Shown here: positions 43,401-46,400 of the stretch, piece after piece
Layout: every line of letters begins with the position of its first letter
How positions within the stretch are numbered: the stretch's first letter is position 1
Source: Lepidurus packardi
Lineage: Eukaryota; Arthropoda; Branchiopoda; Notostraca; Triopsidae
Direction of reading: 5' to 3'
Length of the DNA stretch: 64,000 nucleotides
NCBI GenBank assembly: GCA_023053545.1
Contig: JAKZAN010000004.1
Coordinates: forward strand, 3,100,001 to 3,164,000
Made by a program: the position numbers and the translations under genes
The notes under the pieces: model-generated
What the model was told of the DNA's origin: nothing
Seen by the model: the letters and a program-made list of their open reading frames with translations, nothing else
Database searches by the model: none

Positions 43401-46400
43401 AACTGCTTTTCCCTGAAATTTAAAAATACTTTTGCAACAAATGATTAAGCATATTTGCATAAATCCCAAAAGGCTTATGACTATTTCCCTAGTCTGATCC
43501 CTCACTAAGTAAAGCCAATGGGTGCATTAGAGAAGCTAGACAACTTCTACATGTAGTTTTGCACGCTGCACCATAACAGATGAAAAATCTATGGACCCAA
43601 CAGACAGATCTACTTTTCATTGTTGCTAACAATGAAAACTACTCGACCGAACTTAAGTCATTATTTTCTGAAAAACAGTAGAGCATGTCAATATTGTTAG
43701 TGACGCTATCCATTGTTTTATACGTGAAAAAAGCGTAAAACGTTCGATTTCTCTAGAAGCCAAAGGCGCTTAAGTTCTGTAAGCCTTGCTACAGTCTGGA
43801 GCGATTATAACTGATACACGGTGCAGCTTGAAGCTATGATTTCTTTACCAATATTTTCTCAAAAATTGGATACTCCCCGAACTCTAGTTAGAAACAAAGT
43901 TAAATATTAACCACTTTTTGGTGAGGCCAAGCAGAAAGCTTTTTATTCTGAAGCGCTACACTAAAAATTGAAGTATAATTTGTTATTAAAATCAGCTACT
44001 TAATTCTCTATAAATAATTAAGTGCATGCTTATGTTTATCACAACATATTTATGACGCCAAACATCAAATACTATGGTAACGATAATTTTTCCAATACTC
44101 GCATTTCATTACTAATTAAAAGATGTATTTGCCTCTTATCACTATATTCTCAATTATCTCAAAGATATTATGCATCTTATAGAAGAGCAACTTTAGAAGA
44201 GGGGATGGGGCTTAAAACCAGATCCGTTACTACTGTACGAAGAAATATCCGATCTCAAGGCGACTAGTATAGTTCACTTAATAAAGTATCACTTCGGAAT
44301 ACGAACAAAGGCATGAAAAAGATCAATGGAATATCTGGTTTTATTGTTTTGTTTCTTATCTGGTTCCGTTCTCGTAAATATGCACGGAATGTTAGGAACG
44401 TCCATACATAATGTTCCGGCATGGGAAAAATTATACAGGCAACAGTCGTTTCTATGGCTTTTGCGTGGATCTGTTGGATGAAGTGTCGCGCATCGTGGGA
44501 TTTAATTACATCATGGAATTAAATCAAGACGGCCTGTACGGAATGCCAAATCCCGTCACAGGCGAATGGAATGGCATCGTCAAGCAGCTCATAACGAATG
44601 TATTAGCTCTCTATTTTGGTTAAGTTTCAAGAATTTCTGCTTCTTGCATGGCTTTTCGTTTTGTGTGAGAAAAAAAAATTATGCAAAAACATCATGCATA
44701 TCATTATGCATAAATCTAAGCATGGATGCGTTGATCTTGTTTTTAAAGCAAAGTAAAAGTACAGAGCTAGTACGAGGTATTTTGTGCTAGGAAGTACCTT
44801 ATGTGATGCTGAGGACAGATGTAGCTAATTTGACGGGTAATCAACGCTTCGAAGGCTTCTGTATCGACATGCTCGAGTACATCGCGCATAGACTGGGCTT
44901 CAACTACGTCATCGAGCTTTGTCCGGATGCTAAGTACGGCATTTACAATCCTGCCACCGGCGAATGGAATGGCATCGTCCGCCAACTCATTAACAAAGTA
45001 CATCATATACTGTCGTAATGCTGTGTAGAGAAAACTTTAGCGCTTGCTTGGGTGGACATACATGCCTTATGTTAATTTGCTTCGTGAGTTCCTTAGGGGC
45101 GCTTTTCGTACCGTTAGCAAATGGGGCAGTAAATCGAAATTGTGTTAATGAATATCGTTTATTTCCTTTTATGGAAAACACGATTGCAGAGAGCGGATTT
45201 AGCCGTCGGGTCCATGACTATCAATTACGCCCGGGAGAGCGTCATCGACTTTACGAAACCTTTCATGAACCTAGGAATCAGCATTTTATTCAAAGTAAGA
45301 CTCTATTGCTTTCTGTTTGCTTATTATCAAGGAAAGCCCACTATCGAATTGCATCAGTCCAGATTTCTTACTTCTGTCTCTTATATACAATACACAATAC
45401 TTATCAACAATAAAGTTGTATTGTGGAAAAGAAGGATTAATGATATGCGTTATACATGTAAAAGATATGTTTATACATATTCTTAATTTTCTTGTGCGGC
45501 AGAATCTAAGAAGTTAAAAACAGAATTGTTTTTGGTTTCAGTAACATATTTCAAAGTTTTAATCGCAATATAGCTTTATCGTTATAACACATTAGTTTAT
45601 CCATAATCGTCGGACAGAACGGAAGACAAGGAATTGGAGTGTTGAAGTTTAAAATCGTAGTGCTTTGTCATTCTAGATCCCTTTAAAGTGAAGCTATAAA
45701 TCTTGCAAGTCGCAAATCTGTTGTTTTTGTTTTTGCAGGTGCCCAAACGTGAACCTGCACGGCTTTTTTCGTTCATGAATCCACTCACCATCGAGATCTG
45801 GTTATGCGTCTTAATCGCGTACGTGCTCGTGTCCATCACGTTGTTTATCGTAGCACGATTCTCGCCATACGAGTGGCACAACCCTCATCCATGCATCAGC
45901 ACCGTTGGGGTAGTGGAAAACCAATTTTCGCTATCCAATAGCTTCTATTTCACGGTGGGCACACTCATGCAGCAAGGCTCGGATCTCAATCCCAAAGTAA
46001 CCCCAGGTTTCTTCCTTTTGCTTCATTGTGCCTTTAGCTACCCTTTTCGAACTCATTGTTATGCATGACAGCTGACAAATGATTAGGCGATTCTGGGTAG
46101 AATTATGAGCCCAAGTCAATTCTACGTCTTGATAGGCAGCATCGACTCGGATCGTGGGAGGAATGTGGTGGTTCTTTACTTTGATCATCTTCTCGTCTTA
46201 CACGGCTAACTTGGCTGCCTTCTTCACTGTCGAACGCATGATTACGCCCATAGAATCGGTACAGGATCTGGCGGACCAGAACGAAATAGCCTACGGAATC
46301 GCAGATAGTGGATCCACGATGACGTTTTTTACAGTAAGTTCACTAAAATGAAAGAAAGTAAAGGGGGGGAAAGAAAAACATGAAAGGAAAGGAAGACAAA

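What the first reader, a model, noticed from the sequence alone, without database searches (positions are those of the whole stretch)
44396..44997. Two tandem, interchangeable S1 ligand-binding exons in one kainate receptor gene
Exons 44396-44599 and 44791-44997 encode the same stretch of the S1 lobe. Both are phase 0/0 with their own acceptor and donor, and about 38 of 68 residues match. Using both would duplicate part of the binding lobe, so mutually exclusive splicing is the natural reading. The differences sit in the agonist cleft region: exon B keeps the RFEGF glutamate (equivalent to GluA2 Glu402, which bridges the two lobes), exon A has RFYGF, and the segments before the conserved Tyr differ (NQDGLYG against CPDAKYG). 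One gene could thus make two receptors with different agonist sensitivity or efficacy. I do not recall this arrangement being described for arthropod kainate receptors.
Basis: partly seen in the sequence, partly recalled or inferred. Interest (0 to 1): 0.87.

Follow-up and report, generated by a model that had tools for sequence, protein, structure and literature searches.

The report
Alternative binding-lobe exons in kainate receptor
A crustacean glutamate-receptor gene carries two different copies of one exon of its glutamate-binding lobe, and relatives among insects and crustaceans carry the same pair, so the gene most likely makes two old and distinct receptor versions by choosing one exon or the other.

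Summary
Exons 44396-44599 (A, 68 aa) and 44791-44997 (B, 69 aa) encode the same S1 stretch of an intact kainate-type gene; 38 of 67 aligned residues match. Both are open, phase 0/0, with GT-AG sites. The pair is not local: relatives from insects, branchiopods, malacostracans, an ostracod and a barnacle have A-type and B-type exons. The 27 gene-1 A exons form one supported clade (96/98) with the signature column removed. Predicted isoforms hold A only, B only, both or neither, so alternative use is well supported; strict exclusivity is not.

The RFEGF/RFYGF residue is GluA2 Glu422, not Glu402. The Glu402 equivalent is residue 1 of both exons; it and Tyr450 are kept in both here. So a switch in agonist sensitivity lacks its stated support. 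The real A mark is an aromatic at 422.

Beyond the window: a neighbouring kainate gene has a tandem pore-exon pair with Arg or Gln at the Q/R site; R-type and Q-type pores also recur in insect and crustacean relatives.

The parts
44396..44599 (+). Exon A: S1 (lobe 1) alternative exon, 68 aa, RFYGF type; phase 0/0
   Evidence: clade of A exons
44791..44997 (+). Exon B: S1 alternative exon, 69 aa, RFEGF type; phase 0/0
44396..44398 (+). Codon of GluA2 Glu402 equivalent in exon A (GAA, Glu)
   Evidence: numbering; column count
44791..44793 (+). Codon of GluA2 Glu402 equivalent in exon B (GAA, Glu)
44453..44455 (+). Codon of GluA2 Glu422 equivalent in exon A (TAT, Tyr): the A-type signature
44851..44853 (+). 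Codon of GluA2 Glu422 equivalent in exon B (GAA, Glu)
44537..44539 (+). Codon of GluA2 Tyr450 equivalent in exon A (TAC)
44935..44937 (+). Codon of GluA2 Tyr450 equivalent in exon B (TAC)
42825..43028 (+). Exon upstream of the pair (end of amino-terminal domain and first strand of S1)
44600..44790 (+). Intron between A and B, 191 nt; holds a TGCATG at 44645 (RBFOX-like word, recalled motif; weak evidence)
45190..45294 (+). Exon downstream of the pair (end of S1, [16 protein letters not shown])
45739..45996 (+). M1-M2 pore exon of this gene, Gln at the Q/R site; no second copy found in this gene
34352..47893 (+). Whole coding span of the kainate-type gene, 17 exons counting both A and B (hand-assembled)

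Best explanation
Exons A and B are an ancient pair of alternative, mainly one-at-a-time exons of a pancrustacean kainate-type receptor gene. The pre-mRNA joins exon 42825-43028 to either A or B and then to 45190-45294. This swaps residues equivalent to GluA2 402 to about 470 of lobe 1: loop 1, the helix after it, and the loop up to the next helix (element names recalled). The first-shell agonist residues carried by this exon (Glu402, Tyr450 equivalents) stay the same. Shown: two intact homologous exons; deep conservation of both types; predicted isoforms of both types in relatives. Inferred: both receptors still bind glutamate, and the swap changes the outer face and second shell of lobe 1, marked by a nearly invariant aromatic at position 422 in A. 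It would thereby tune gating, desensitisation, assembly or auxiliary-subunit contacts rather than agonist choice. Exclusivity is probably regulated rather than forced, because A+B and exon-less transcripts stay in frame.
For: Pair and frame. Homologs: 223 distinct proteins from 120 listed of 353, 347 and 1087 hits were labelled A+B 97, B 72, A 35, neither 15, B+B 4. favour double copies; in the 120 listed, which used the shared amino-terminal domain, labels are B 52, A 28, A+B 25, neither 15. Separate A-only and B-only isoforms in 11 of 25 chosen entries, including Daphnia magna, Eriocheir, Scylla, Panulirus, Tribolium, Lycorma. cDNA-like contigs of 2963-4708 nt that hold the whole spliced frame: P0113 and P0189 join A, P0170 and P0187 join B, straight to KADLA. 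Tree without the signature column: 27 gene-1 A exons in one starred clade, 96/98, window A inside. Mean identity A-A 0.659, B-B 0.639, A-B in the same species 0.541. Signature: Tyr/Phe at 422 in 69 of 72 distinct A copies and 0 of 93 distinct B copies, the four Artemia proteins left out; the exceptions are His in three Timema and Ser in two Diaphorina proteins.
Against: No RNA evidence from this species. A+B is the commonest label in the pooled set (97 of 223), and 25 of 120 in the less biased list; the database merges sequences at 90% identity, so neither is a frequency. Some A+B proteins may come from transcript assemblies (Sirex P0011, P0012; Clastoptera P0079; Odontothrips P0099; origin not stated, suggested by names and sources only), so A-B junctions probably occur. 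All A exons including those of the second paralog as one clade is neither shown nor rejected, p-AU 0.448. Splice-site scores do not single the pair out: A donor 15th and B acceptor 11th of 16, but B donor 10th and A acceptor 6th. Function is inferred from conservation only. Both AlphaFold models were too poor to use.
Confidence: 0.77

Rival explanations
1. Exon A is an optional cassette added in front of a constitutive B, giving a receptor with a duplicated piece of lobe 1, rather than an alternative to B.
For: 97 of 223 homologs are A+B in that order (the labels were trained on first and second copies, but the 422 residue agrees: Tyr/Phe in 92 of 97 first copies, in 0 of 97 second copies). 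Both exons in frame. A+B in proteins that may be transcript-derived.
Against: 35 of 223 are A-only, including two cDNA-like contigs (P0113, P0189). In the less biased list 80 of 120 hold one S1 exon and 25 both. A copies are as conserved as B copies (A-A 0.659, B-B 0.639) and keep Tyr450, which suggests that A itself forms a binding lobe. In human flip/flop, described as exclusive, both-exon junctions also reach 12% (PMC8257547, passages).
Confidence: 0.13
2. The A receptor differs in agonist sensitivity because it lacks the lobe-bridging Glu402.
For: The swap does lie in the binding lobe. In gene 1 of decapods and an isopod, in a barnacle and in a whitefly, the A exon's first residue, the true Glu402 equivalent, is Asp or Asn.
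Against: In this gene the Glu402 equivalent is Glu in both exons; the residue that differs is 422. GluN1 has Tyr there in PDB chains (CCYGFC). Tyr450 is kept in 34 of 34 A and 38 of 38 B rows. The barnacle's B exon has Asp as well.
Confidence: 0.08
3. One of the two exons is a dead or unused duplicate in this species, or the tandem is an assembly artefact.
For: No transcripts of this species were available; A's donor AAT|GTATTA scores 15th of 16 in the gene.
Against: Both exons are open with canonical sites, both types recur in the same order in relatives, and the end branches of the window's A and B are not long (0.20 and 0.32 against a median of 0.14).
Confidence: 0.05

Closest known systems
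AMPA-receptor flip/flop exons (GRIA1-4)
   Same: Homologous alternative exons in the ligand-binding domain of an ionotropic glutamate receptor, described as mutually exclusive (PMC8257547, passages).
   Different: Flip/flop are 115 nt, 38 aa, at the end of S2 and the dimer interface, and using both shifts the frame. The pair here is 204/207 nt in S1, both-exon transcripts stay in frame, and it lies in a kainate-type gene of arthropods.
GluK1 exon 9 splice insert
   Same: Alternative splicing of a kainate receptor that changes an extracellular domain (PMC11540303, start of abstract in the listing).
Arthropod Dscam mutually exclusive exon clusters
   Same: Duplicated exons kept in pancrustaceans and used in a mutually exclusive way (PMC4244043, passages).
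   Different: Many exons for immunoglobulin domains; here two exons, and exclusivity is unproven.
Drosophila KaiR1D (CG3822; PDB 5dtb)
   Same: A solved arthropod kainate receptor; best PDB sequence match of exon B.
   Different: Has an ordinary QFEGY S1; whether flies keep an A-type exon was not determined.

Membership tests
Kainate-type ionotropic glutamate receptor subunit | Amino-terminal domain, S1/S2 binding domain and pore in one protein | tested here: met
   PF01094, PF10613, PF00060, PF00497 above cut-off in both isoforms
Kainate-type ionotropic glutamate receptor subunit | Closest relatives by sequence are kainate subunits | tested here: met
   PDB best hits GluK2 for A, KaiR1D and GluK3 for B; protein hits mostly named kainate 1 or 2
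Kainate-type ionotropic glutamate receptor subunit | Gated by glutamate and kainate | not testable with these tools
   needs expression and recording
Mutually exclusive exon pair | Adjacent homologous exons, same phase, similar length, own splice sites | tested here: met
Mutually exclusive exon pair | Transcripts contain one or the other | tested here: inconclusive
   A-only and B-only models in relatives, but also 97 A+B and 15 with neither of 223, or 25 and 15 of 120 in the less biased list; no RNA of this species
Mutually exclusive exon pair | A built-in device that prevents double inclusion (frame, spacing, splice-site class) | tested here: not met
   both multiples of 3; 191-nt spacing against a 52-nt intron in the same gene; all GT-AG. 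Regulated exclusion by trans factors or RNA structure was not tested
Flip/flop exon pair | Located at the end of S2 | tested here: not met
   The pair is in S1, GluA2 402-470 region

The most novel reading that the evidence does not exclude
The ancestral pancrustacean kainate gene carried two tandem exon pairs: A/B for lobe 1 and R/Q for the pore. In it, splicing rather than RNA editing sets the Q/R site, so one gene yields four receptors (all four combinations are among predicted Lycorma isoforms). After an old gene duplication, branchiopods such as this species split the two choices between neighbouring genes: gene 1 keeps A/B with a Gln-only pore, gene 2 keeps one S1 exon with the R/Q pair.
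Probability: 0.5. Interest if true: 0.82.

Novelty: new variant of a known kind. Interest (0 to 1): 0.64.

Why it matters
Insects and crustaceans use glutamate at the nerve-muscle junction (recalled general knowledge), and my searches found little on splice choice in their ionotropic glutamate receptors. An exon pair that replaces most of the first part of the binding lobe, present in both forms from branchiopods to ants, predicts two functional classes of receptor from one gene in many arthropods. Work on a single cloned isoform would miss one class. The neighbouring R/Q pore pair, if confirmed, would mean that arthropods can set the Q/R site of kainate receptors by splicing, where vertebrates use RNA editing. 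Both are directly testable by long-read RNA and by recording A/B and R/Q versions side by side.

Tried and rejected

Third S1 copy in the window: none. In the same assembly the other receptor genes matched showed one S1 exon each; these searches score only the best candidates. An A-like remnant near the neighbour gene's S1 exon: none by tblastn with six A exons.

Steric or NMD-enforced exclusivity: rejected from spacing and frame. RBFOX-like TGCATG: 2 in 43029-45189 against 0.5 expected from the window's density; too few to rely on.

Structure prediction: job 1 (Tribolium A+B model P0065 with 63 other rows) gave mean pLDDT 56.0, pTM 0.33; that model also lacks the pore exon. Job 2 (A-only, Daphnia magna P0105 with 44 other rows) gave mean pLDDT 46.8, pTM 0.32. 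As the A-only control is no better than A+B, neither says anything about folding of A, B or A+B. No fold search was run.

A first exon table had one acceptor off by one, corrected. The self-repeat scan printed nothing and did not show the pore repeats; searches replaced it. dN/dS was not tried: I had no DNA of the relatives. Flies, moths, chelicerates and myriapods did not appear in the 120-row listings that I saw.

Literature: 10 searches showed no description of the S1 pair. Passages of PMC7570057, PMC4244043, PMC12580572, PMC2924276, PMC4370714 and PMC5096308 gave none either. No search targeted the pore pair, which I noticed later; 'not in print' is not claimed for it.

Full report
The observation. 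Window exons 44396-44599 (A) and 44791-44997 (B) translate without stops. They align over 67 columns with 38 identities, find each other at E 4.3e-23 and 4.7e-23, and score 207 against a best of 5 in 500 shuffles; no third copy was found in the window. Assembled by hand, the gene has 17 exons counting both, from ATG 34352 to the stop ending at 47893. Isoforms with A, B, both or neither are 910, 911, 979 and 842 residues, all in frame (one search had one acceptor off by one). A and B isoforms carry PF01094, PF10613, PF00060 and PF00497. Best PDB matches are kainate subunits. So this is an intact kainate-type receptor gene with two interchangeable S1 exons.

The argument for altered agonist sensitivity rested on calling the Glu of RFEGF the GluA2 Glu402. 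A GluA2 query that starts at NKTVVVTTILESPY matched 4uqk_A at 392-506. That puts Glu402 at the Glu before SPY, which is the first codon of both exons (GAA in each), Glu422 at RYEGY, and Tyr450 at DGKYG. PMC3979659 (passages) names E402, S403, Y405, Y450 and G451, which fits, and describes the T686-E402 hydrogen bond. In the 34 A and 38 B rows the Tyr450 site is Tyr in all. The 402 site is Glu in 24 of 34 A and 35 of 38 B rows. The ten A exceptions are five named decapods of gene 1 and one unnamed row identical to one of them, an isopod, a barnacle, a whitefly and a stick insect. In this gene both are Glu. GluN1, which binds glycine (recalled), has Tyr at the 422 site in PDB chains, so Tyr there does not by itself mean a lost ligand contact.

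How old and how widespread. Three protein searches returned 353, 347 and 1087 hits, of which 120 each were listed, 223 distinct proteins in all. The first two used the exon region and favour proteins with two copies. Sorted with profiles trained on first and second copies, the 223 are A+B 97, B 72, A 35, neither 15 and B+B 4 (the four B+B are Artemia). The third search used the shared amino-terminal domain; its 120 listed proteins are B 52, A 28, A+B 25, neither 15. All these are clusters at 90% identity, not frequencies. Because the labels are partly trained on order, I checked the 422 residue separately. Tyr or Phe occurs in 92 of 97 first copies and 35 of 35 A-only copies, and in 0 of 97 second copies and 0 of 72 B-only copies. 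Counting distinct sequences it is 69 of 72 A and 0 of 93 B, Artemia left out. The exceptions are His in three Timema proteins and Ser in two Diaphorina proteins. A tree of 75 exon sequences without that column puts 27 gene-1 A exons (window, Daphnia, decapods, amphipod, isopod, ostracod, barnacle and 16 insects of nine orders, orders recalled) in one clade at 96/98. Six A exons of a second paralog form their own clade; joining all 33 is not rejected (p-AU 0.448), nor shown. With few columns many forks are open, and the B exons are not resolved as a clade. Mean identities are A-A 0.659, B-B 0.639, A-B within a species 0.541. The pair therefore predates the split of these pancrustacean lineages, and both members have stayed under constraint.

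Evidence for splicing. No RNA of this species was available. From the 223 I picked 25 species or gene entries (a few hold two genes); 11 have separate predicted A-only and B-only isoforms: Schistocerca gregaria, Neocloeon, Nilaparvata, Lycorma, Tribolium castaneum, Neodiprion pinetum, Apis florea, Daphnia magna, Eriocheir, Scylla, Panulirus. I take these as one gene each from names and contig lengths; I aligned them only for Daphnia magna (96% over 933 residues). They are computed gene models whose read support I could not see. Four proteins come from short contigs (2963-4708 nt) that hold the whole spliced frame and so look like cDNA (source tag lgn, which I take for assembled public reads). 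Two join A and two join B directly to the next exon. Against strict exclusivity stand the A+B models. Four A+B proteins have no contig listed and names or sources that suggest transcript assemblies (Sirex noctilio, Sirex nitobei, Clastoptera, Odontothrips); their origin is not stated. For comparison, human flip/flop exons, described as mutually exclusive, show both-exon junctions of up to 12% that shift the frame and should be degraded (PMC8257547, passages). Here both-exon and exon-less transcripts would stay in frame.

What could enforce the choice. Not the frame (204 and 207 nt) and not spacing: the intron between A and B is 191 nt while the gene as assembled has one of 52 nt. Scored against the gene's other sites, A's donor ranks 15th of 16 and B's acceptor 11th of 16, while B's donor (10th) and A's acceptor (6th) are average. 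Regulated choice by trans-acting factors or RNA structure remains and was not tested. Two TGCATG words lie in the flanking introns against 0.5 expected; this is weak.

Likely mechanism. Splicing installs either A or B. Each supplies Glu402 and Tyr450 equivalents, and the shared next exon supplies the Thr480 and Arg485 equivalents ([10 protein letters not shown]; mapping by eye). Both forms should therefore bind glutamate. What changes is loop 1, the helix that follows and the loop before the next helix, with a nearly fixed aromatic at 422 in A. I infer effects on gating, desensitisation, assembly or partner proteins. That step is not shown. Two AlphaFold models, of an A+B and of an A-only relative, were both too poor to help.

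Beyond the coordinates. The window's assembly is held (108.6 Mb, 344 contigs). Among the matches found in it, only this gene has two S1 exons. A second kainate gene on the minus strand begins inside the window (exons 9945-9787, 1870-1550) and runs off its left edge. It has one S1 exon (Glu at 422) and no A remnant was found. It does have two adjacent M1-M2 pore exons of 258 and 264 nt with GT-AG sites: one ends FITGTLLRQGSGLNPK with Arg at the Q/R site, the other [16 protein letters not shown] with Gln. Among the 223 homologs the pore labels are Q 154, R 31, R+Q 15, none 21, others 2. Lycorma models show A-Q, A-R, B-Q and B-R. A tree of 35 proteins without S1 and pore exons groups this neighbour with Daphnia pulex gene 2, Artemia, a beetle protein and decapod and isopod second genes (100/99). 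It groups the window gene with Daphnia gene 1 (88/94, not starred). In the entries, insects and the barnacle of the gene-1 kind show both pairs. Decapod and isopod gene 2 also show both pairs. Decapod and Daphnia gene 1 show A/B with Gln only, and Daphnia gene 2 one S1 type with R and Q. The simplest reading is an ancestral gene with both pairs, an old duplication, and, in branchiopods, the S1 choice kept by one copy and the pore choice by the other. That the Q/R site is the first of the two Gln in MQQG is recalled.

Known or new. None of 10 full-text searches of the open library showed this S1 pair. Three papers on predicting or analysing exclusive exons have no 'glutamate' in their main text (PMC3228551, PMC3303723, PMC3923563; term counts; supplements not seen). 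A survey of crab and lobster receptors lists five kainate-like sequences and in the passages seen says nothing of alternative exons (PMC5096308). Most subscription papers are not in the library, and the pore pair was not searched for. The kind (homologous alternative exons in a glutamate-receptor binding domain) is known from flip/flop; position, gene class, in-frame double inclusion and depth in Pancrustacea are the differences.

Noticed in passing
window 9945-9787 and 1870-1550 (minus strand); L009, L008 (C3:3084001-3101000): A second kainate-type gene starts in the window on the minus strand and runs off its left edge, head to head with the gene of the finding; one S1 exon was found in it.
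   Followed up: yes
L008 8896-8639 and 8366-8103 (minus strand): Tandem M1-M2 pore exons in that neighbouring gene, one with Arg and one with Gln at the Q/R site; R-type and Q-type pore segments recur in insect and crustacean homologs.
   Followed up: partly
L012 5635-5991 and 6218-6574: An AMPA-like gene (by eye) of the same assembly has two tandem stretches for the end of S1 plus M1-M2; the pore ends read LGSLLKAGSVTLPR (Lys at the Q/R position) and LAAFMSQGADVSPR (Ser).
   Followed up: no
L010 4253-3798 and 3605-3462 (minus strand): A further kainate-type gene (KaiR1D-like by eye) shows a second partial match to the pore exon, SLIQGGSGVNPK beside SLMQQGGDIAPK.
   Followed up: no
P0027, P0029, P0030, P0033 (Artemia): Artemia models that group with gene 2 carry two S1 segments that both have Glu at 422: a reverted A, a converted A or a new duplication.
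   Followed up: no
window about 50252-51221 (plus) and 53540-53836 (minus): Open frames that read like a glycoside hydrolase (SGMNLAWFQ) and a sulfotransferase-like gene downstream of the receptor; named by eye only.
   Followed up: no
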